DNA of 33,314 nt from Pseudomonadota bacterium (GTDB lineage: Bacteria; Pseudomonadota; Gammaproteobacteria; Pseudomonadales; Moraxellaceae). Made by a program: the position numbers and the translations under genes. The notes beneath the pieces were generated by a model. The model was given only the letters and a program-made list of their open reading frames with translations, was not told the origin of the DNA and ran no database searches. The stretch is from positions 1 to 33,314 of the forward strand of contig CAUJHL010000011.1 in assembly GCA_963204705.1 (NCBI GenBank), given 5' to 3'. Numbering within the stretch: the stretch's first letter is position 1; each line of letters starts with the position of its first letter. Below, one piece after another: positions 1,010 through 24,398 of the stretch.

Positions 1010-2674
1010 ATGAATCTGAAAACCTATTTTCGCACCGGTGAAGCCTATGTCTGGCTGAATGCAGGCGCTGTGACCCTGTGTCTGATGATGATCGTGGGCA
1101 TTTTGGGACTGATTGCCGTGCGGGGCATGAGCCATTTTTGGCCTGCCAATGTGATGGAAGCGACCTATCATTCCCCGGATGGCACGGTTCAAACACTGAT
1201 CGGTGAGCTGTACGATGAAAAAACCGATCCCGCTTCCCGTCTGACCGAAGCTGGTTTGCCGGTACCTGAGGGCATTGCGCCGACTGAGCCGGTCACACGA
1301 TGGTCGATCAAACAGGGCAATAAGGACATCAGTGGTCAGGATTTCGTCTGGGTCACCCGGCCTTTTATGAGTGCTGTGTCTTATCCGAATGATCTGGTGC
1401 GTCTGGAACGTCTGGAGTACGGCAATTTTTATGGCCGCCTGCAGTCGGTGACGGTCAAAGGGCGCACGACCACGGGTAATTATGCATTCGCTGCGCTGGA
1501 GCAGGGAATTGACCGTAGCAATGATTTGCATGCTGCCATGCACGCCCTCGAAAAGGGTCGCATGAGCACCATTAACTACGAGCTGGAGCGTCTGCGCCTG
1601 AAAGAGCGCAAACTGCAACTGGAAGGCAAACTATCGGATGCTACCCAGCAACAGATCAGCCAGCAGCGAACCCAGCTACAAAGCGATTTTGAAAAAGAGC
1701 GCGTCAAACTTGAAGCACTCACTGCGGATCTGAATCGGGACTCTGCAACATTTACCACGGCGGATGGCGTCAGCAAGACCCTCGCGCTGGGTCAGATTTT
1801 GCACGCGAGCCAGCCGAATACCCTGAGTGCGCTGGAAAAGCTGGGGGCTTTCTTTAGCAATATCTGGCACTTCCTGTCGGAAGATCCCCGTGAGGCCAAT
1901 ACCGAAGGCGGTGTGTTTCCGGCCATCTTTGGTACCGTGCTGATGGTGTTTCTGATGACGCTGATTGTCACTCCGCTGGGTGTGGTGGCCGCGATTTATC
2001 TGCGTGAATACGCCAAACAGGGTCTGCTGACCCAGATCGTGCGGATTGCGGTAAACAATCTGGCTGGCGTGCCCTCGATTGTGTATGGGGTGTTTGGACT
2101 GGGCTTCTTTGTCTATGTGGTTGGCGGCAGTATCGATCAGCTGTTTTATCCTGAATCTGCGCCGCAGCCCGTGTTTGGCACTCCCGGCCTGCTATGGGCG
2201 TCAATCACCCTGGCCTTGTTGACGCTGCCGGTGGTGATTGTAGCGACGGAGGAGGGCTTGTCCCGTATTCCCCGTTCCCTCAAGGAAGGCTCGCTGGCGC
2301 TGGGGGCGACCAAGGTGGAAACCCTGTGGAAAGTGGTTTTGCCGATGGCGGCACCCTCCATCATGACCGGAGTGATTCTGGCGATTGCCCGTGCGGCGGG
2401 GGAAGTGGCGCCCCTGATGCTGGTGGGGGTAGTCAAGCTGGCACCAGAGCTACCGCTGGACTTTAATGCACCCTTTCTGCACATGGACCGCAAATTCATG
2501 CACCTGGGTTTTCATATCTACGACGTAGGCTTCCAAAGCCCCAATGTTGAAGCCGCCCGTCCGCTGGTCTATGCCACTGCGCTGCTGCTGGTGCTGGTAG
2601 TCGCTATTCTGAATTTATCCGCGATTGCCCTGCGCAACCGTTTGCGTGAACGTTATAAAGCCCTGGAACACTAA
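1010..2674 (+). CDS. pstA: Phosphate ABC transporter permease PstA, long form
   Basis: Second inner-membrane permease of the Pst phosphate importer, 554 residues, almost twice the length of E. coli PstA. A first membrane segment lies around residues 15-40. A long region follows, probably periplasmic, with a charged heptad-like stretch at about residues 180-246 (rich in Leu, Glu, Lys and Gln) that looks like a coiled coil. The conserved permease domain occupies roughly residues 295-550, with the EAA-type loop [13 protein letters not shown] and the [10 protein letters not shown] motif. The ATG at 1010 has a GAGG at 997-1000 overlapping the pstC stop. Long PstA proteins of this kind are known in Pseudomonadales. 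The role of the extra region is not known to me. Confidence 0.95.
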
Positions 2675-2718
2675 GCCCATTAGTCACTAGCGCTATCCAT
2701 TTGATAGGAAAAGATGCC

Positions 2719-3600
2719 ATGATGAATGTTACGACTGAGCCTGTGCGTCAAGCCAAAAGTCACCCTGCGAGCCTTGAAATGACTGATTTGCCTGCACTGA
2801 AAACTGAATCCAAGCACATTCCCCAGCCTGCTGATCTTGGGGGCGCGGAGATTTGCCTTGAAACCAGCAATCTGAATTTGTTCTATGGTGCCAAACAGGC
2901 GCTGTTTGACGTCAATATGCTGATTCCACGTAAAAAAGTGACTGCGTTTATTGGGCCGTCCGGCTGTGGCAAGTCCACGCTGCTGCGTACCTTTAACCGG
3001 ATGAACGATCTGGTGGATGGCTGTACGATTAAGGGCAAAATCTTGCTGGATCAGCAGGATATCTTTGATCCCAGTGTCGATATTACCAGTTTGCGCCGCC
3101 GGGTAGGCATGGTGTTTCAAAAGCCGAATCCTTTCCCCAAGTCCATTTATGAAAATGTGTGTTATGGCTTGCGCTTGCAGGGTGTCAAAAACAAGAACGT
3201 GCTGGATGAAGCCGTCGAAACTTCCTTGCGTGGCGCGGCGCTGTGGGATGAAGTCAAGGATCGCCTGAATGAGTCCGCGCTGGGCTTGTCGGGTGGCCAG
3301 CAGCAACGGCTGGTGATTGCCCGGGCGATTGCTGTGCAACCGGAAGTCCTGTTACTGGATGAGCCCTGTTCGGCGCTGGACCCCTTGTCCACCCTGCGGG
3401 TAGAGGAGCTGATTCACCAGCTGAAAGAGCAGTACACCATTCTCATCGTTACCCATAACATGCAACAGGCTGCCCGCGTTTCGGACTACACCGCCTTTAT
3501 GTATCTGGGCAAATTGATCGAGCACACCGACACCAACACGATTTTCACCAATCCCCACCACAAACAAACCGAAGATTACATCACTGGCCGGTATGGCTAA
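2719..3600 (+). CDS. pstB: Phosphate ABC transporter ATP-binding protein PstB
   Basis: Cytoplasmic ATPase that drives phosphate import through PstC/PstA. The frame opens upstream at a TTG (2701), but the ATG at 2719 is preferred because AGGAAAAG lies about 8 bases before it; this gives 293 residues. Walker A (GPSGCGKST) is at residues 79-87, the ABC signature LSGGQ at 190-194, and Walker B with its catalytic Glu (LLLDEP) around 211-216. The first 50 or so residues form an N-terminal tail longer than in E. coli PstB (257 residues). The gene follows pstA after 44 bases and precedes phoU by 11, so it is part of one operon. Expression is expected to respond to phosphate through PhoB, but no evidence for that lies in this window. 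Confidence 0.97.
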
Positions 3601-3611
3601 GGGAGCACACC

Positions 3612-4328
3612 ATGTCGAATCAGGATATGCATTTTCATCATATTTCCCAACAGTTTAATCAGGACCTGGAAGAAGTCCGTACCCTGTTTCTAAGCATGGG
3701 TGGTCTGGTCGAGGAACAGGTGACCAACGCCACACACGCCCTGCTGGAAACCGATGCCAAAATGGCACTGACGGTGCAACACACCGACCAGCGCGTCAAC
3801 AGCATGGAAACCCAGATTGATGAAGCGCTGGTGCGTATTCTTGCCCGCCGGCAGCCTGCGGCCAGCGATCTGCGGATGGTGATTGCCATCAGCAAAGCCA
3901 ACACCGATCTGGAACGCATTGGCGATGAAGCGGTCAAGATTGCCCGTATTGCACAGTCACTGAGTGAAGAAGGGGAGTCTCCGCGCGGCTATACCGAAGC
4001 TCGCCATATTGGCAATCAGGTTCGTCTGATGATCCGTGATGCGCTGGATGCCTTTGCCCGTATGGATGCCGCACAGGCGCTGCGCGTGATGCAGGCTGAT
4101 GCCGATATTGACCGCGAATATCAGTCGACCACCCGTGCCCTGATGACGTATATGATGGAAGATCCTCGCCATATCAGTCGGGTCATCAACGTGATGTGGG
4201 TACTGCGTGCGCTGGAGCGGATGGGTGACCATGCCCGCAACATTTCGGAGCAGGTGATCTATATGGTCAAGGGCGAGGACGTGCGTCACACCAGTTATGA
4301 TGTGATTGAAAAAAATATTAGTGAGTAA
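3612..4328 (+). CDS. phoU: Phosphate signalling regulator PhoU
   Basis: PhoU couples the Pst transporter to the PhoR/PhoB two-component system and holds the Pho regulon off when phosphate is plentiful. The 238-residue length is typical. The all-helical protein has the two PhoU repeats: NTDLERIGDEAVKIA in the first half and ALERMGDHARNISE in the second. These are the acidic metal-cluster motifs of the family. GGGAG at 3601-3605 is a good ribosome binding site 6 bases before the ATG. It is the last gene of the pst operon; a terminator hairpin follows at 4387-4434. The order pstC-pstA-pstB-phoU is the usual one. Confidence 0.97.
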   Translation: MSNQDMHFHHISQQFNQDLEEVRTLFLSMGGLVEEQVTNATHALLETDAKMALTVQHTDQRVNSMETQIDEALVRILARRQPAASDLRMVIAISKANTDLERIGDEAVKIARIAQSLSEEGESPRGYTEARHIGNQVRLMIRDALDAFARMDAAQALRVMQADADIDREYQSTTRALMTYMMEDPRHISRVINVMWVLRALERMGDHARNISEQVIYMVKGEDVRHTSYDVIEKNISE

Positions 4329-4386
4329 GCGCGTTGACGGCAGGCTACGGCAAGGCAATGGGTGTCTTGCAAGTAGCCACTTTGGA

Positions 4387-4434
4387 CTGGACTCCTGAAC
4401 CGGCGCTGTTCGGGAGGTGATCCAGTTTGTTTTG
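4387..4434 (+). terminator. Rho-independent terminator after phoU
   Basis: CTCCTGAAC (4392-4400) pairs with GTTCGGGAG (4408-4416), with one G-U pair, around a 7-base loop. CTGGA (4387-4391) can pair with TCCAG (4421-4425) to extend the stem. A T-rich run, TTTGTTTT, follows immediately. It ends the pst-phoU transcript and separates it from the large exported protein downstream. Confidence 0.7.
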
Positions 4435-4539
4435 TCGGATTCATTTTATAAAAAACTCAAAATAAGCCTATTCTTGATGCTGTATAACCCATAATACGGC
4501 ATTACTGTCGATGATAGCCGCGCACTACAAGGAAATTTC

Positions 4540-7500
4540 ATGCAGCCCCAGGCCAAGCTGAGCAACCATCCTATGCAGTCTGTATGGCTCTGTGTGTTTG
4601 TCTGTTTGCTGGTGATGCAGGTTTTTAGTCCGGCTCATGCCTATCAGCGCAGCTATCTGAATCTTGGCTTTGAACAGCCAGTTATTGATAGCAGGGCTCC
4701 CTGTCGAGTGTATCTTGCTAATACCAGGGTGCCGGGATGGCTGACAACGCACCCTTTCTGGGCTGAGGCAGCCTCTTCAGAGTGTTCGACTAGCCATATT
4801 GCTACTACTGGCACCGGTCAGATCATTGAAATCTGGCAAGGTCCCCGCGACATTGCCGGTGGTGCAAATACCACCAATCGCATGCCAGCACGTGAAGGTA
4901 ATCAATTCGTAGAACTCAACGCCGAAGCTGTTTCTGAGCTTCAGCAAAACATTTGCCTGGTGAATGGCGAGCCGGTCAGCTGGCGCTTTAGTCATAATGG
5001 CCGGAACACAACCAATGACACAATGGTTTTCCGTGCAGGCACTCAGCCTATTGTAAATGTCTCTACTAGCACCACCGGCTCGGGTGCTGTTACCAATTGC
5101 TATGCAGGCACTTGTACAGTTAATTCTTCCATGATGACACAAGATGGTGTGACGCGCTGGGCGGACTATTCAGGTACGTTTAACTATACGGGCGCATCAG
5201 GCCAGACAGTTATTGGGTTTCAGTCAACCTCCGGCTCATCCACAAGTGGTAACTTTCTGGATGGTGTTCAGATCACTGTCAAGCCTATCGTCGAATTTAC
5301 ATCGGCCAACTACTCTACTCCCGAAAATAATGGCTCACCCCAGCCGGTACAGGTGGTGGTGGCCGGTATCGTCCCGACAGGGGGACTAACGCTAACCTTT
5401 AATGTAACAGGTGGCACGGCAGTTTTGGGCGGGGACTATACGATCAACGGTGGCTCTGCCAGCACCTTTAATGTGACATTGCCTGCAGGAGATTATGGGC
5501 AAGGCACTCCACTCATTATTAATGTCCCCGTTAGCATCGTTGATGACGCAGTCAGTGAACCGGATGAAACCTTTTCAGTTAGCTTGCAACCCAACAGTAA
5601 TTATCACTTGATGTCCACCAGTGTGTGTGGCGCATCCGGCAATGGCTCGGCAACTTATACCATCATTGATAATGATGCTCCGACTGATATGGATCTGCGA
5701 ATAGTCAAATCCCAGCGCGCAGGGAACAGCGGGACATTTCAGACCACACCACTGACGGTGACTGGCGGTACATTTCAATATCGGCTAGTGGTAAGCAATC
5801 AGGGCGTTACAACACTGACCTCAGGGACGCCAGCTGCCTTTAGCGATGCAGTGCCTGCAAATTTCACGGGCATGAGTGTGATTAGTGCTAACACTGGCGC
5901 AGGTGCGACCAGCTGTTCTGCCAGTTTCACGGGAAATACCCTGAATGGGTTGTTCAGCGGGCCGCCGGGCGCCACCTGTACTGTTACGGTGGAGGGAACG
6001 GCAGCGACCAGCGGCACAATTAATAATACTGCGACAGTGACAGTGCCAGCGGGTAATAATGAAATTTATCCTATGGACAACACCAGCACGGTCACCACCA
6101 CCATTGCCCGTGCCCGTCTGAATCTTTATAAAATCTCTAATGGTGACACTGGGACTTTTACTTTTACCCTGACCAACACCACGCAAAATTCAGGTAATAC
6201 GGTTACCACCAGTTTTCCGGGGGTGCCGGAACAGGTAGATGGTGTCTCAGCTACGGCGGGAACGCAGGCGTTCATCATTAGTACCAGTGGGGCGATCACC
6301 ATACAGGAAAGCAGTATTCCTGCTGGCTGGACCCTAAACGGAGCGACCTGTACTAATAGCTCGGGGGCAACGGTCGGGACATTCACCAATCCGACTTATA
6401 CGATTCCGAACGCTAGCAATACGGCGGGTCAGGTATTTGACTGTTACTTTCTAAATAACAAAAATCCCACAATAAAGGTTGAAAAAACTTCCTATGGCGG
6501 TACAGCGGGTTTTACTTTTGCAGATACCAATTTAACAGGCGCTGTAGGGACCTTGACGACGACGAGTTCCGGAACGCCAGTGCAATCTGCCAATTTGCCG
6601 GTTACGGTGGCTGGAACCAATGTCACTATTACCGAGACTCCTACTGCAGGTTATACCCTGACGTCAGCCAGTTGTGTGGATGATAACAGTGCGTTTACTG
6701 GAAATTTGGGAACCTTTGGCTCATTGACCGGCTCGGTGCTGACGGTCCCAAGCTCTAATTTCGTGTTGGGTGCGGACATTCGGTGTACTTTCAGCAATCG
6801 ACGAAGTACAACCCTGACCCTACGTAAAACATGGGCTGCTGGAAGTACGGCTGGGCATACGGCTACGGTAGCCAGCTCCGGTTTCATCAATACGGCAACT
6901 TCGGGCCCTTCAACCGCGACGGCTGCAGGCAATACAACAACAGGCACTCCTACAACAGTATATGTGGGTGAGTCAGGCACTATAGGTGAATTATTTGGTG
7001 GAGGCGCACAGGGTGCTGATTATGCCGCGACCCTGTCCTGTACCGGGACCAATGGCACACTGAGTGGTAATACACTAACGGTAACTTCTGCTGCTGGATC
7101 AGCGATAGTTTGTACTGAAACCAATACCAAATTGCCTAAAATAACCCTGACCAAAATCAGTAATGGCGGGGTAGGGGGATTTAGTTTTAGTGGCAATAAT
7201 GGCTTTGCCAATCAAACCATCACCACTGTAACACCAGGAGTTTCGGTTGCTGGCACTACCCAGACCCTCTCTGCTGCTTCTGTAGCTACCGTGATTACTG
7301 AGACAATTCCAGCGGGATATGTGGTTAGCAGTATTGCCTGTTCAGGGTTGGGGGCTGGAGGAACAGCGACAACGAATCTCAACACAGGTACGGTATCTCT
7401 GGATGCCGCAGCGACCGCACCGGGTGCCGTCATAGCCTGTACTTTTACCAATGCCAAAATCCCAACCGTAAAAGTGCAAAAAATCACCAATAATGGTTTT

Positions 7501-10239
7501 GGTGGACCGTTTAGTTTTGCTCAAACCAATTTGTCAGGCGCGCCTGCCGCTATTACAACCACCGCTACTAACACGGCAACGCCTGCCTCACCTACTGCAA
7601 TTGAGGTTACTGCTATTGGCACAGCCATCACCCTCACCGAAACGCCCGCGACGAATTTTGCGTTAAGCAGTGCCAGTTGTACCGATGCAAACAGCGCAGT
7701 CACTGGAAATACGGGTGCGCTTGGTACGCTGGCGGGAAATGTATTAACGTTGGCTGCGGGAGTCGTTAAGGCAGGGGCGGATTTTAATTGTGTTTTTACC
7801 AATCAGAAGACCACAACCATTACGCTGAAGAAAACCTGGTCAGCAGGCTCTGCAGCCAGTGATACCGCCACGGTCAGCTTAAAGCGTGGAGCGACCTCGG
7901 TAGACAGTTTAAGTTCCACTGCTACGGCAGCGGGCAATACCGACACTGACAGCACCCCGTTTACTGCCAATGTTGGCGAAACCCTAAACCTGAGCGAAAC
8001 GCTTGGTGGAAGTAATGCGGGTCAATACACCGCCACCCTGTCCTGTGACAACTCGGTGACAGTAAGTGGTACCGGTGACTTTACGGTTCCTGCTACGGCC
8101 ACCAACTGTACGGTGACCAATACTCGCAAAACCACCACCATCACCCTGAAAAAGGCGTGGTCTTCGGCTGCGATTAATGACACGGCTACGGTGACTCTCA
8201 AACGCGGTGCTACCAGCGTCGATTCACTGGCATCTACAGCTAATACAGCGACTGAAACCGACACCGACAGCACCCCGTTTACTGCCAACGTGGGCGAAAC
8301 TCTAAACCTGAGTGAAACCCTTGGCGGCAGCAATGCCGGTCAATACACCGCCACCCTGTCCTGTGACAACGCGGTGACTTTTAATGGCAGTGGCGACTTT
8401 ACGGTTCCTGCTACGGCCACCAACTGTACGGTGACCAACACCCGCAAGACGGCCACCATCACCCTGAAAAAGGCGTGGTCTTCGGCTGCGATTAATGACA
8501 CGGCTACGGTGACTCTCAAACGCGGTGCTACCAGCGTCGATTCACTGGCATCTACAGCTAATACAGCGACGGAAACCGACACTGACAGCACCCCGTTTAC
8601 TGCCAACGTGGGCGAAACCCTGAACCTTAGCGAAACGCTTGGTGGAAGTAATGCGGGTCAATACACCGCCACACTGTCCTGTGACAACTCGGTGACTATT
8701 AATGGCAGTGGTGACTTTACGGTTCCAGCCACGGCCACCAACTGTACGGTGACCAACACCCGCAAGACGGCCACCATCACCCTGAAAAAGGCGTGGTCTT
8801 CTGCTGCAATTAATGACACGGCTACGGTGACTCTCAAACGCGGTGCTACCAGCGTCGATTCATTGGCATCTACAGCTAATACAGCGACTGAAACCGACAC
8901 TGACAGCACCCCGTTTACTGCCAACGTGGGCGAAACGCTAAACCTGAGCGAAACCCTTGGCGGCAGCAATGCCGGTCAATACACCGCCACCCTGTCCTGT
9001 GACAACTCGGTGACTATTAATGGCAGTGGTGACTTTACGGTTCCAGCCACGGCCACCAACTGTACGGTGACCAATACTCGTAACGTGGCAACCACCACGA
9101 CCATTTCGGGCCGTGTCTTTAATGACAATAGTGGCACCACTGGCACTGCCAGCAATGCCTACAATGGCACGCAGCAAACCGGTGAAAACGGTATCGCTGG
9201 GGTCACCATCAATTTGACCAATTGCGCTTCCACCATGCTTGCTACCACGCAGACTGATGCCGCAGGGGATTATCAATTCACTGTACTCGGCAGTAGCTTG
9301 CCAGCAGGGAATGTCTGTATTGTTGAAAGCAACCCATCTGGGTACAGCTCGGTAAGTGGTGGCATCAACGGCAGCACTGGCTATAACCGTACAACAGACA
9401 CCATCACGGTAGCGCTGACAGGGGCGAGTAGCTACGCAGCCAATAATTTTGGTGATGCGATACTCGGCATTATTCTGACCAGCGATGGCCAGCAAACCAT
9501 TCCCGCCGGCCAAACCGCCAGTTACACACACCAATTAACGGTGATGGCACCAGAAACCGTAAATGGCCTGAGCTTTAGCCAAACAGCATCCCCTACCGGA
9601 TTAAACTGGACACAGGTACTGTATCGCGATAGCAACTGTAATGGCATGGTAGATAGCAGCGAAGGAGTAGCGGCGAGCCCAGGGTTGATCCTGCCGGGAC
9701 AAACGGTGTGCCTGGCAGTGGTCGTGAACTCACCAGCCAATGCCAGCACCGGAGCCCAACTGGTGAGCAGCCTACAAGCAAGCTATAGCGTCACGGTGCA
9801 AGATGGCAGTGTATTGACCGGCAACAGCCAGCTTCGTACAGACACCACCCTGATTGGCAGTGCCGGCCTTCAGATGGTTAAGCAAGTGCGTACTGTCAGC
9901 AGTTGTCCCTCGACAGCCGCTGACATAGCCGCCTTTGGCCAGAGCAACACTGCACGGAATGGGGATTATCTCGAGTACGAAATTATTTACCGTAACCGCA
10001 CCAGCAGTACGCTGGGGCAGGTGGTGATCAAGGATGAGGTGCCAGCGGGTACCCTGTTCCGTAGCGCAAGTTGTGAGGTTGTACCTACAGGCAATAGCTG
10101 TGTGGTTGAACTGCAGCCGGCGGCCAATGGCAGTGGACCGTTGCGCTGGAAAACAATCAGCGCAATCCCCTCACAGGGCGAAGGCCGGGTGCGCTTTTGT
10201 GTACAGGTTCCTGCATTGGCTGAGGCGCCCTTACGCTGA
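4540..10239 (+). CDS. Very large exported protein with Calx-beta-like, DUF11-like and nine CnaB/SpaA-like domains
   Basis: This 1899-residue protein begins with a Sec signal peptide (hydrophobic WLCVFVCLLVMQVF, cleavage likely after AHA near residue 34). AAGGAA at 4529-4534 supports the ATG. Domains I read: a Gly/Thr-rich N-terminal domain (about 35-247); a Calx-beta-like domain with the DDAVSEPDETFSV signature (about 248-383); a DUF11-like domain (about 384-524); nine consecutive domains of 106-118 residues (525-642, 643-756, 757-864, 865-973, 974-1090, 1091-1197, 1198-1303, 1304-1409, 1410-1515); an SdrD B-like domain (1516-1640); and a DUF11-like C-terminus. Most of the nine begin with a T-x-x-K strand, have a mid-domain TET or SET and end C-x-x-TN, the Lys/Glu/Asn layout of CnaB/SpaA folds that form internal isopeptide bonds. 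Most also carry a Cys pair. I see no LPXTG, lipobox, beta-barrel or C-terminal membrane anchor. Surface or extracellular structural or adhesive role is inferred; substrate and exporter are unknown. Confidence 0.85.
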   Translation: MQPQAKLSNHPMQSVWLCVFVCLLVMQVFSPAHAYQRSYLNLGFEQPVIDSRAPCRVYLANTRVPGWLTTHPFWAEAASSECSTSHIATTGTGQIIEIWQGPRDIAGGANTTNRMPAREGNQFVELNAEAVSELQQNICLVNGEPVSWRFSHNGRNTTNDTMVFRAGTQPIVNVSTSTTGSGAVTNCYAGTCTVNSSMMTQDGVTRWADYSGTFNYTGASGQTVIGFQSTSGSSTSGNFLDGVQITVKPIVEFTSANYSTPENNGSPQPVQVVVAGIVPTGGLTLTFNVTGGTAVLGGDYTINGGSASTFNVTLPAGDYGQGTPLIINVPVSIVDDAVSEPDETFSVSLQPNSNYHLMSTSVCGASGNGSATYTIIDNDAPTDMDLRIVKSQRAGNSGTFQTTPLTVTGGTFQYRLVVSNQGVTTLTSGTPAAFSDAVPANFTGMSVISANTGAGATSCSASFTGNTLNGLFSGPPGATCTVTVEGTAATSGTINNTATVTVPAGNNEIYPMDNTSTVTTTIARARLNLYKISNGDTGTFTFTLTNTTQNSGNTVTTSFPGVPEQVDGVSATAGTQAFIISTSGAITIQESSIPAGWTLNGATCTNSSGATVGTFTNPTYTIPNASNTAGQVFDCYFLNNKNPTIKVEKTSYGGTAGFTFADTNLTGAVGTLTTTSSGTPVQSANLPVTVAGTNVTITETPTAGYTLTSASCVDDNSAFTGNLGTFGSLTGSVLTVPSSNFVLGADIRCTFSNRRSTTLTLRKTWAAGSTAGHTATVASSGFINTATSGPSTATAAGNTTTGTPTTVYVGESGTIGELFGGGAQGADYAATLSCTGTNGTLSGNTLTVTSAAGSAIVCTETNTKLPKITLTKISNGGVGGFSFSGNNGFANQTITTVTPGVSVAGTTQTLSAASVATVITETIPAGYVVSSIACSGLGAGGTATTNLNTGTVSLDAAATAPGAVIACTFTNAKIPTVKVQKITNNGFGGPFSFAQTNLSGAPAAITTTATNTATPASPTAIEVTAIGTAITLTETPATNFALSSASCTDANSAVTGNTGALGTLAGNVLTLAAGVVKAGADFNCVFTNQKTTTITLKKTWSAGSAASDTATVSLKRGATSVDSLSSTATAAGNTDTDSTPFTANVGETLNLSETLGGSNAGQYTATLSCDNSVTVSGTGDFTVPATATNCTVTNTRKTTTITLKKAWSSAAINDTATVTLKRGATSVDSLASTANTATETDTDSTPFTANVGETLNLSETLGGSNAGQYTATLSCDNAVTFNGSGDFTVPATATNCTVTNTRKTATITLKKAWSSAAINDTATVTLKRGATSVDSLASTANTATETDTDSTPFTANVGETLNLSETLGGSNAGQYTATLSCDNSVTINGSGDFTVPATATNCTVTNTRKTATITLKKAWSSAAINDTATVTLKRGATSVDSLASTANTATETDTDSTPFTANVGETLNLSETLGGSNAGQYTATLSCDNSVTINGSGDFTVPATATNCTVTNTRNVATTTTISGRVFNDNSGTTGTASNAYNGTQQTGENGIAGVTINLTNCASTMLATTQTDAAGDYQFTVLGSSLPAGNVCIVESNPSGYSSVSGGINGSTGYNRTTDTITVALTGASSYAANNFGDAILGIILTSDGQQTIPAGQTASYTHQLTVMAPETVNGLSFSQTASPTGLNWTQVLYRDSNCNGMVDSSEGVAASPGLILPGQTVCLAVVVNSPANASTGAQLVSSLQASYSVTVQDGSVLTGNSQLRTDTTLIGSAGLQMVKQVRTVSSCPSTAADIAAFGQSNTARNGDYLEYEIIYRNRTSSTLGQVVIKDEVPAGTLFRSASCEVVPTGNSCVVELQPAANGSGPLRWKTISAIPSQGEGRVRFCVQVPALAEAPLR
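7810..9084 (+). repeat. Four tandem intragenic repeats, 321 + 3 x 318 bp
   Basis: Units lie at 7810-8130 (321 bp), 8131-8448, 8449-8766 and 8767-9084 (318 bp each), all in frame, each encoding one CnaB-like domain of 106 or 107 residues. The last three are nearly identical at the DNA level; the first differs mainly in its 5' third. Small differences are shared in mosaic fashion: units 1 and 3 share the variant GGTGGAAGTAATGCG where units 2 and 4 have GGCGGCAGCAATGCC, while units 3 and 4 share GTTCCAGCC where units 1 and 2 have GTTCCTGCT. This suggests recent duplication and recombination, and probable copy-number variation. Confidence 0.95.
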
Positions 10240-10253
10240 GGGTGTTTGCCTAT

Positions 10254-10290
10254 AAAAAAGGGGCACAGTGATGAACTGGCCCCTTTTTTT
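10254..10290. terminator. Bidirectional terminator between the large exported protein and yggX
   Basis: AAAAAAGGGGC (10254-10264) pairs with GCCCCTTTTTT (10279-10289) around a loop of about 14 bases. The A-tract on one side and T-tract on the other make it work on both strands. It sits between two convergent genes, 15 bases after the large protein's stop and about 50 bases past the end of yggX. Confidence 0.88.
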
Positions 10291-15406: not shown

Positions 15407-15481
15407 TTTATTAACGAGCTATTTATTAATGTGCTGTTTATTAATGTGCTGTTTATTAATGAGCTTTTGATTAAGTGATTG
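15407..15481. repeat. AT-rich 15-bp tandem repeat array between hemC and hemD
   Basis: Five consecutive 15-bp units: TTTATTAACGAGCTA (15407), two exact TTTATTAATGTGCTG (15422, 15437), TTTATTAATGAGCTT (15452) and a decayed TTGATTAAGTGATTG (15467). The array is far more AT-rich than the surrounding genes and lies between the hemC stop (15342) and the hemD start (15533). It is probably prone to slippage. No function is known to me. Confidence 0.92.
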
Positions 15482-22862: not shown

Positions 22863-24398
22863 ATGGCGCTTACTCCCATTGAATTGCTGGAGCAGGAAGT
22901 CACCCCGCGCGTGATTCCTGTACCGGATCCACAGGGTGCCCATACGGCAGCCTTATCCCATTTGTATGCATTTTTTCTGGCCTTGCTTAGCCGTAACCCC
23001 GGCCTGGCAAGCACTCTGAGCACAGCGGGGGGTAATGGCTGGACGCAATTGCTGGATCATCCCGAAGCACGACAGCAGCTGGTTCAGGAACTGGCGCGTC
23101 ATCATAATTTGCCAACCGGCGAAATATCCCGTCTTGCTTCCGATGCCTTGCCGCTGGCGATTCCCCTGCTGATTCAACAGGCTGGTGCCACAGGCCTGGG
23201 TCCTTTTTTAATGGAGCACAAGGCTTCCATCGTCTCCCGCTTACCGGCCTGGGCGGCGCCCATTCTGGCCCTGTTGGGGCTGGGTGATTGGGTGGGACGC
23301 ACCTCGCAGGCTGCCGTTACTGCGCCTTCAGCACCTAACCGCGTCGTAGTGCAGGATCGCGCTGCACCACCGTGGCTACCCTGGGTGGGATTGTTGCTAT
23401 TGGGCCTTTTGACCATGCTGGGATGGAAGGCCTGCCACCATGAAACCGTGGCTCCTGTTGCCTCTGTGCCGGTCGCACCACCGGCTCCCGTTCAGGCTGC
23501 CTCCACGGTGCCCGCTTCCCTGCTGATGACGACTGGTACTGGCAATGAAGTCTTTGCCTGTCGGGCCATGGTGGGAACCGAGGCACTGCGTACACAGCTC
23601 ATGGCGGCGATTGCCAAGGTATTCAGCGGCTATAACCAGTGCCATATTGAGGTGGATAGTAGCTATGGCAACAATTTGCCCACAGATGCACGGCTGGAAC
23701 ACATCCTGTCACTGGTCAAGGGGACTCCCAATGCCAGCTTGCAGCTGCAAAATGGCGAGCTGATGATCAACGCTCCCGATACCGCCCAGCGGGATTTGCT
23801 GATTGGTCGCCTCAAAGCCCTGCAAACCGATCTGAGCATCATTCCTGCGCCAGCGCTGAATGTGGAGCAGTCCGTCCACGACAGTATTCAATCCGCCAGC
23901 ACTGCCTTGCAGGCACTCGATGCAGCCACCGCCAAACCTTCGGATGTGGCGCGTGCCCTGAATTTGCAAATCATTAATTTTGCCAGTGACAGTGCGAACA
24001 TTCCCGAGATCAACAAGCCGGTATTGATCAAGGCAGCGGAGTTGATCAATAAAGTCTCCAATGTGCAGCTGACCATTCAGGGCCATACCGATTCCACTGG
24101 AGACGTTGCGCATAACAAGGATCTTTCCCAGCGCCGCGCCCAGTCGGTAAAAGACTTTCTGGTTGCGCAGGGCGTGGATCAGGCAAAACTTGGCACCGAA
24201 GGGTATGGTTCCGAGCAGCCGATTGCCGACAACGTGACCGAACTGGGCAAGTTTAAAAACCGTCGCATTGAGTTTGTAGTACTGAATACCGCCACCGGAA
24301 CCGTGCGCCACGTCGATGAAGTTTCCAGTCAATCGGGCGTCATTGAGGGCGTGCATCAGGATGGCAGTGTGGAGCACAACACGATGGGTACGCCCTGA
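22863..24398 (+). CDS. Inner-membrane-anchored OmpA-family peptidoglycan-binding protein
   Basis: A 511-residue protein. Residues 1-165 are helical with no signal peptide and are probably cytoplasmic. One membrane segment lies at 171-187 (Leu-rich, after PPWLPW), followed by a Pro/Ala/Val linker. A middle domain around 235-335 resembles a divergent BON-type fold. The C-terminal OmpA domain, about 370-475, contains INFASDSANIPE, the diaminopimelate-binding IQGHTDSTGD and FKNRRIEFVV. That layout would pin the inner membrane to peptidoglycan from the periplasmic side. GGAG at 22853-22856 supports the ATG. The gene is monocistronic with a strong terminator after it. I do not recognise the N-terminal domain. 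Confidence 0.88.
   Translation: MALTPIELLEQEVTPRVIPVPDPQGAHTAALSHLYAFFLALLSRNPGLASTLSTAGGNGWTQLLDHPEARQQLVQELARHHNLPTGEISRLASDALPLAIPLLIQQAGATGLGPFLMEHKASIVSRLPAWAAPILALLGLGDWVGRTSQAAVTAPSAPNRVVVQDRAAPPWLPWVGLLLLGLLTMLGWKACHHETVAPVASVPVAPPAPVQAASTVPASLLMTTGTGNEVFACRAMVGTEALRTQLMAAIAKVFSGYNQCHIEVDSSYGNNLPTDARLEHILSLVKGTPNASLQLQNGELMINAPDTAQRDLLIGRLKALQTDLSIIPAPALNVEQSVHDSIQSASTALQALDAATAKPSDVARALNLQIINFASDSANIPEINKPVLIKAAELINKVSNVQLTIQGHTDSTGDVAHNKDLSQRRAQSVKDFLVAQGVDQAKLGTEGYGSEQPIADNVTELGKFKNRRIEFVVLNTATGTVRHVDEVSSQSGVIEGVHQDGSVEHNTMGTP

What the first reader, a model, noticed from the sequence alone, without database searches (positions are those of the whole stretch)
6112..9084. Nine consecutive CnaB/SpaA-like domains in a Gram-negative exported protein
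Residues 525-1515 read as nine domains of 106-118 residues, most starting with a T-x-x-K strand, with Glu in a mid-domain TET or SET, and ending C-x-x-TN. Lys-Glu-Asn in those places is the layout of CnaB/SpaA folds that form spontaneous internal isopeptide bonds in Gram-positive pili and adhesins. Most also carry a Cys pair near the end, which would allow a disulfide in the oxidising periplasm or outside the cell. If both bonds form, this would be an unusually stable extracellular rod. Domain naming is from pattern reading only.
Basis: partly seen in the sequence, partly recalled or inferred. Interest (0 to 1): 0.62.

Follow-up and report, generated by a model that had tools for sequence, protein, structure and literature searches.

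The report
Isopeptide-stapled stalk of a Moraxellaceae adhesin

Summary
The 1899-aa ORF (4540-10239, +) has nine tandem domains at residues 525-1515. They are CnaB-like. D1, 2, 4 and 5 match Pfam SpaA_4; D6 matches SpaA_3; D3 is sub-threshold; D7-9 match nothing alone but are about 86% identical to D6. Across 75 domain copies from relatives, Lys, Glu, Asn and two Cys are invariant, also after redundancy removal. All nine window domains, not just most, carry the Cys pair. In the matching domains Lys and Asn fall on the model positions expected from the published isopeptide exemplars. AlphaFold2 of D5-D6 gives two beta-sandwiches (pLDDT 87.8), and the 19 best solved-structure matches are Gram-positive pilins or pilus adhesins. 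Bond geometry was not measured (no coordinates). A preceding DUF11 domain has a Lys-Asp-Asn triad and may hold a tenth bond. Such domains, and their disulfides, are already published for Pseudomonadota (PMC12617251): a new member of a known kind. Most likely it is the stalk of a fibrillar adhesin with a variable N-terminal tip. The less familiar part is the constant C-terminal module, which ends in a truncated DUF11 and is usually encoded near a putative outer-membrane barrel protein and an OmpA-family protein.

The parts
4540..4641 (+). Sec signal peptide, residues 1-34 (cleavage after AHA)
   Evidence: Sequence shows a hydrophobic core and AHA|Y; a 4626-aa relative keeps ...VHA|YQRSYLNLGFE
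4642..5280 (+). N-terminal region, residues 35-247, candidate adhesive tip
   Evidence: No Pfam family. With residues up to 384 it is found in only two of the relatives examined, while other relatives carry different N-termini
5281..5676 (+). Calx-beta-like domain, residues 248-379
   Evidence: Pfam PF03160, E 5.7e-06 but just below the curated cut-off
5686..6111 (+). DUF11 (CLIPPER) domain, residues 383-524, with candidate triad K390, D436, N514
   Evidence: Pfam PF01345; residues read from sequence against the published DUF11 triad K715/D748/N806
6112..6465 (+). Domain D1, SpaA_4 type: K531, E590, N639; Cys 604/635
   Evidence: Pfam SpaA_4 E 2.4e-22
6466..6801 (+). Domain D2, SpaA_4 type: K649, E699, N753; Cys 712/749
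   Evidence: Pfam SpaA_4 E 5e-26
6802..7134 (+). Domain D3, SpaA_3-like: K763, E817, N862; Cys 834/858
   Evidence: SpaA_3 sub-threshold, 16 bits against 24; 50% identical to D6
7135..7461 (+). Domain D4, SpaA_4 type: K872, E921, N971; Cys 934/967
   Evidence: Pfam SpaA_4 E 6e-31
7462..7809 (+). Domain D5, SpaA_4 type: K981, E1034, N1088; Cys 1047/1084
   Evidence: Pfam SpaA_4 E 3.3e-25; AlphaFold2 beta-sandwich
7810..8130 (+). Domain D6, SpaA_3 type: K1098, E1153, N1194; Cys 1169/1190
   Evidence: Pfam SpaA_3, 27.9 bits against 24; AlphaFold2 beta-sandwich
8131..8448 (+). Domain D7, as D6: K1205, E1259, N1300; Cys 1275/1296
   Evidence: 86% identical to D6; tandem array of 318 bp
8449..8766 (+). 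Domain D8, as D6: K1311, E1365, N1406; Cys 1381/1402
   Evidence: 86% identical to D6, 97% to D7
8767..9084 (+). Domain D9, as D6: K1417, E1471, N1512; Cys 1487/1508
   Evidence: 85% identical to D6, 99% to D8
9085..9459 (+). SdrD_B-like domain, residues 1516-1640; no Lys in the first strand, so no isopeptide bond predicted
   Evidence: Pfam PF17210 E 3.5e-11; sequence
9469..9855 (+). Middle beta-sandwich of the C-terminal module, residues 1644-1772
   Evidence: AlphaFold2 strands; conserved in 13 aligned sequences
9868..10236 (+). C-terminal truncated DUF11, residues 1777-1899; lacks the final strand(s) and the acceptor Asn
   Evidence: DUF11 profile 10-53 of 114; all 13 aligned sequences end at the same strand, GxVxF
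10253..10290 (+). Intrinsic terminator just after the gene
   Evidence: GC stem followed by seven T; 61-nt stretch folds at -25 kcal/mol, z -4.17

Best explanation
The protein is a Sec-exported surface fibrillar adhesin of a Moraxellaceae bacterium. Its nine CnaB-like domains form a stiff stalk. In each domain the Lys of the first strand and the Asn of the last strand probably react, helped by the Glu of a central strand, to form an internal isopeptide bond with loss of ammonia. The two Cys probably form a disulfide that ties the last strand to a neighbouring strand; the periplasm is oxidising. The DUF11 domain before them may add a tenth isopeptide bond. The stalk holds a variable N-terminal region, the likely binding part, away from the cell. 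The constant C-terminal module probably docks it at the outer membrane. Shown: sequence, domain families, invariant residues, predicted fold, repeat-number variation. Inferred: bond formation, surface exposure, adhesion, anchoring.
For: Pfam SpaA_4 on four domains and SpaA_3 on one. In the SpaA_4 matches Lys falls on model position 5 and Asn on 105 of 107 in all four; in D6 they fall on positions 6 and 119 of 121 of SpaA_3. By position within the family boundaries these agree with the published exemplars (K704/N814 in 700-816, K298/N409 in 293-411). K, E, N and both Cys invariant in 75 copies. AlphaFold2 of D5-D6: pLDDT 87.8, pTM 0.81, with K7 in the first strand, E60 in a middle strand, and N114 and K124 on one long strand joining the two domains. 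All 19 Foldseek matches at E <= 0.001 are Gram-positive pilins or pilus adhesins (Spy0128 and relatives, PitB, PitA, SpaA, SpaC). Relatives keep the C-terminal end but vary the stalk: 9 domains here, 24 in G004, 0 to 5 in the named Moraxellaceae loci. A signal peptide is present; codon usage and GC fit the neighbours.
Against: No coordinates were released, so Lys-Asn-Glu distances were not measured. Foldseek TM-scores over the two-domain model are low (0.22-0.37), as expected if inter-domain angles differ but not proof of that. D7-9 match no Pfam family alone. No known adhesive domain and no known outer-membrane anchor was recognised in the protein.
Confidence: 0.76

Rival explanations
1. CnaB-like fold in which Lys, Glu and Asn stay unlinked and only the disulfide staples the domain.
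For: The Cys pair is as invariant as the triad, and bond geometry was not measured. PMC12617251 notes for DUF11 that the bond-forming residues are not universally conserved.
Against: Strict conservation of Lys, Glu and Asn together has no other obvious reason, and families SpaA_3 and SpaA_4 are listed with predicted isopeptide bonds.
Confidence: 0.09
2. A sortase-assembled pilin, as the Gram-positive proteins that fold the same way.
For: Best structural matches are Gram-positive pilins, which sortases assemble (established knowledge).
Against: No LPxTG-like motif or membrane tail at the C-terminus (sequence); the chain ends in a truncated DUF11. The protein is 1899 aa with its own N-terminal region and stalk, unlike a pilin subunit.
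Confidence: 0.03
3. A secreted matrix or surface-layer-like protein that coats cells or holds aggregates together rather than a single-molecule adhesin.
For: DUF11 proteins of archaea are linked to cell aggregates and surface layers (PMC12617251); no binding domain was recognised at the N-terminus.
Against: Variable N-terminus, repeat-variable stalk and constant C-terminus are the layout of fibrillar adhesins.
Confidence: 0.12

Closest known systems
SpaA_4 (PF24514) and SpaA_3 (PF20674), prealbumin-like CnaB-type isopeptide domains
   Same: D1, 2, 4 and 5 (SpaA_4) and D6 (SpaA_3) score above the curated cut-offs; Lys and Asn on the same model positions; disulfides reported as prevalent in both families
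   Different: D3 is below the cut-off and D7-9 match no family alone, so the B-type is a divergent branch; Cys pair invariant here
Acinetobacter silvestris fibrillar adhesin B9T28_05395 (PMC12617251; CLIPPER/DUF11 structure 9IFR)
   Same: Same family Moraxellaceae, adhesin with several isopeptide domains, DUF11 domains present
   Different: The characterised domain there is CnaA-like DUF11 with a CTTC disulfide; the stalk here is mainly CnaB-like. The two proteins were not aligned here
Spy0128, major pilin of Streptococcus pyogenes (PDB 3b2m)
   Same: Best Foldseek match; Lys-Asn bonds with a helping Glu (established knowledge)
   Different: Gram-positive, sortase-polymerised two-domain pilin subunit rather than a long single-chain stalk
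Mfa5 of Porphyromonas gingivalis
   Same: Gram-negative surface protein with an intramolecular isopeptide bond (PMC7835359)
   Different: Ancillary tip protein of type V fimbriae with a von Willebrand domain; not a long tandem stalk

Membership tests
SpaA_4 / SpaA_3 domain families | Score above the curated Pfam cut-off | tested here: met
   Met by D1, 2, 4, 5 (SpaA_4) and D6 (SpaA_3); not met by D3 or by D7-9 alone, which are placed by identity to D6
CnaB-type isopeptide domain | Lys in first strand, Glu in central strand, Asn in last strand | tested here: met
   All nine domains have the residues; invariant in 75 copies; strand positions from AlphaFold2 for D5-D6 only
CnaB-type isopeptide domain | Prealbumin-like beta-sandwich fold | tested here: met
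   AlphaFold2 pLDDT 87.8; 19 of 19 matches at E <= 0.001 are Gram-positive pilins or pilus adhesins
CnaB-type isopeptide domain | Lys NZ to Asn CG within bonding distance, with Glu beside them | not testable with these tools
   Model coordinates were not released
CnaB-type isopeptide domain | Covalent bond with loss of 17 Da | not testable with these tools
   Needs mass spectrometry
Fibrillar adhesin | Long protein with signal peptide and repetitive stalk | tested here: met
   1899 aa, signal peptide by sequence, nine tandem domains; 24 in a relative
Fibrillar adhesin | Adhesive domain | tested here: inconclusive
   N-terminal region matches no known family; no binding test
Fibrillar adhesin | Cell-surface anchor | tested here: inconclusive
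   No known anchor; constant C-terminal module linked to barrel-type and OmpA-family genes
Sortase-assembled pilin | C-terminal LPxTG-like motif, hydrophobic stretch and basic tail | tested here: not met
   C-terminus ends ...RVRFCVQVPALAEAPLR

The most novel reading that the evidence does not exclude
The constant C-terminal module, ending in a DUF11 that lacks its last strand, is a docking signal for a dedicated outer-membrane apparatus made of a DUF11/SdrD_B protein with a C-terminal barrel and an OmpA-family protein, which displays stapled adhesins of many kinds, perhaps by strand complementation of the open last domain.
Probability: 0.25. Interest if true: 0.65.

Novelty: new member of a known kind. 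Interest (0 to 1): 0.33.

Why it matters
It is a clean example that Gram-negative bacteria use isopeptide-plus-disulfide stalks, until recently thought of as a Gram-positive design, and that copy number of the stapled domain varies widely among close relatives. The open question it makes testable is how such proteins are carried across and held at the outer membrane without a sortase or a recognised secretion signal beyond Sec; the conserved barrel-type and OmpA-family neighbours give a concrete candidate.

Tried and rejected
Sequence search of the PDB with the protein or the domain profile found no meaningful match; the fold search did. Pfam matches to ADAMTS_spacer1, AARP2CN, Kv2channel and others are weak and below cut-off, taken as composition effects of a Thr-rich repeat. 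A first genome-contig scan with the whole protein found nothing; a scan with the C-terminal module worked. Contamination by foreign DNA was considered and rejected: GC 52.6% against 54.4% for the window, codon usage correlation 0.86 with neighbours, and gene neighbours are ordinary proteobacterial ones. Collapse of tandem copies by assembly was considered: D7-D9 differ at 17-19 of 318 bases pairwise, so they are separate copies, but the exact number in a 169-contig draft is not certain. A PDB profile search with the barrel-type region found nothing, and strand alternation there is only weakly above shuffles (z 2.7), so 'barrel' stays a reading of the sequence. Type 11 secretion was looked up and gave no link. 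The best Foldseek matches of the C-terminal module are integrin leg domains, sialidases and pilins with low TM-scores, taken as generic beta-sandwich similarity.

Full report
Observation. The ORF at 4540-10239 (+) encodes 1899 aa. Nine tandem domains of 106-118 residues fill residues 525-1515, exactly 6112-9084. Four are one type (A: D1, 2, 4, 5) and five another (B: D3, 6-9). D6-D9 are 85-99% identical to each other, a 318-bp tandem array; D8 and D9 differ at 17 nucleotides but only 1 amino acid.

Families. D1, 2, 4 and 5 match Pfam SpaA_4 at E 2e-22 to 6e-31, D6 matches SpaA_3 at 27.9 bits (cut-off 24), D3 is sub-threshold for SpaA_3, and D7-9 match nothing credible alone. The rest of the protein is a signal peptide, an unassigned N-terminal region, a Calx-beta-like domain just below cut-off, DUF11, then SdrD_B, an unassigned beta-sandwich and a truncated DUF11.

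Residues. From relatives 26 A-type and 49 B-type copies, window included, were aligned. Lys, Glu, Asn and two Cys are invariant in all untruncated copies; a few other columns (Phe in A; Tyr, Leu, Thr, Gly in B) are also invariant in the reduced sets. In the Pfam matches Lys falls on model position 5 and Asn on 105 of 107 in all four SpaA_4 domains, and on 6 and 119 of 121 in D6 (worked out from the end points of the matches). By position within the family boundaries this agrees with the exemplars of PMC12617251, K704/E766/N814 and K298/E353/N409.

Fold. AlphaFold2 on D5-D6 with 24 aligned sequences gave pLDDT 87.8 and pTM 0.81. All 19 Foldseek matches with E <= 0.001 in the PDB are Gram-positive pilins or pilus adhesins: Spy0128 and relatives, PitB, PitA, SpaA and SpaC.

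Host. They are in the window's family, hence Moraxellaceae, Gram-negative. SpaA_4 was found in 10 of 398 genomes drawn from the phylum.

Known or new. PMC12617251 (2025) surveyed isopeptide bonds in predicted structures, lists SpaA_3, SpaA_4, SdrD_B and DUF11 as such families, finds a significant number in Pseudomonadota, and reports disulfides as prevalent in SpaA_3 and SpaA_4. The finding is therefore a new member of a known kind.

Stalk and ends. Stalk length varies: 24 domains in a 4626-aa relative, 9 here, none to five in the named Moraxellaceae loci. The N-terminal region is shared with only two of the relatives examined. The C-terminal module of 384 residues is constant (13 sequences, 50% mean column identity), also in two partial paralogous pieces of the own genome, one of which follows a DUF11 stalk. 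It ends at the same strand in all 13, before the part of DUF11 that carries the acceptor Asn.

Neighbours. In relative G016 the adhesin gene directly follows a 2140-aa DUF11/SdrD_B protein and a 368-aa OmpA-family protein. The window's genome has homologues of both side by side on contig C29, not beside the adhesin, whose own neighbours are a phosphate-transport-type cluster with phoU and, beyond it, a haem cluster. Of 58 genomes, 10 of 11 with the C-terminal module also have the barrel-type region, against 6 of the other 47 (Fisher p 1.5e-6, not corrected for relatedness). Of 27 named loci, 17 have it within the fetched flank of up to 10 kb. The gene order barrel, OmpA, adhesin is seen in Pelobacter and Alcanivorax too. 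That the region is a barrel is a reading of its sequence, weakly supported.

Verdict. Interest is moderate to low because the class was published; the linked display genes are the part worth following.

Noticed in passing
G000:C29 (L066) 1525-7131 and 7110-8375: A DUF11/SdrD_B protein of 1869 aa with a barrel-like C-terminus, overlapping an OmpA-family gene; homologues of the barrel-type region lie near genes with the adhesin C-terminal module in 17 of 27 named loci. Candidate outer-membrane display apparatus.
   Followed up: partly
9868-10236; also C-termini of DUF11 proteins in L046-L049: The last DUF11 of the adhesin lacks its final strand(s), and neighbouring DUF11 proteins in relatives end at a similar point. 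May be a sorting or docking signal.
   Followed up: partly
G000:C116 end (L057) and G000:C129 start (L056): Two partial paralogous pieces with the same C-terminal module; the C116 piece has eight DUF11 matches instead of SpaA domains. Their overlapping ends are 84% identical over 337 bases, so they are two genes or two diverged copies.
   Followed up: partly
L045 (G004:C4), ORF of 4626 aa: Relative with at least 24 SpaA-like domains; 71% identical to the window protein over residues 23-1010.
   Followed up: partly
15407-15474: Short tandem repeat of a 15-bp unit (TTTATTAATGAGCTG, 4.5 copies) between the porphobilinogen deaminase and uroporphyrinogen-III synthase genes.
   Followed up: no
22863-24398: Another OmpA-family protein (511 aa) in the window, weakly similar to the OmpA-family partner.
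   Followed up: no
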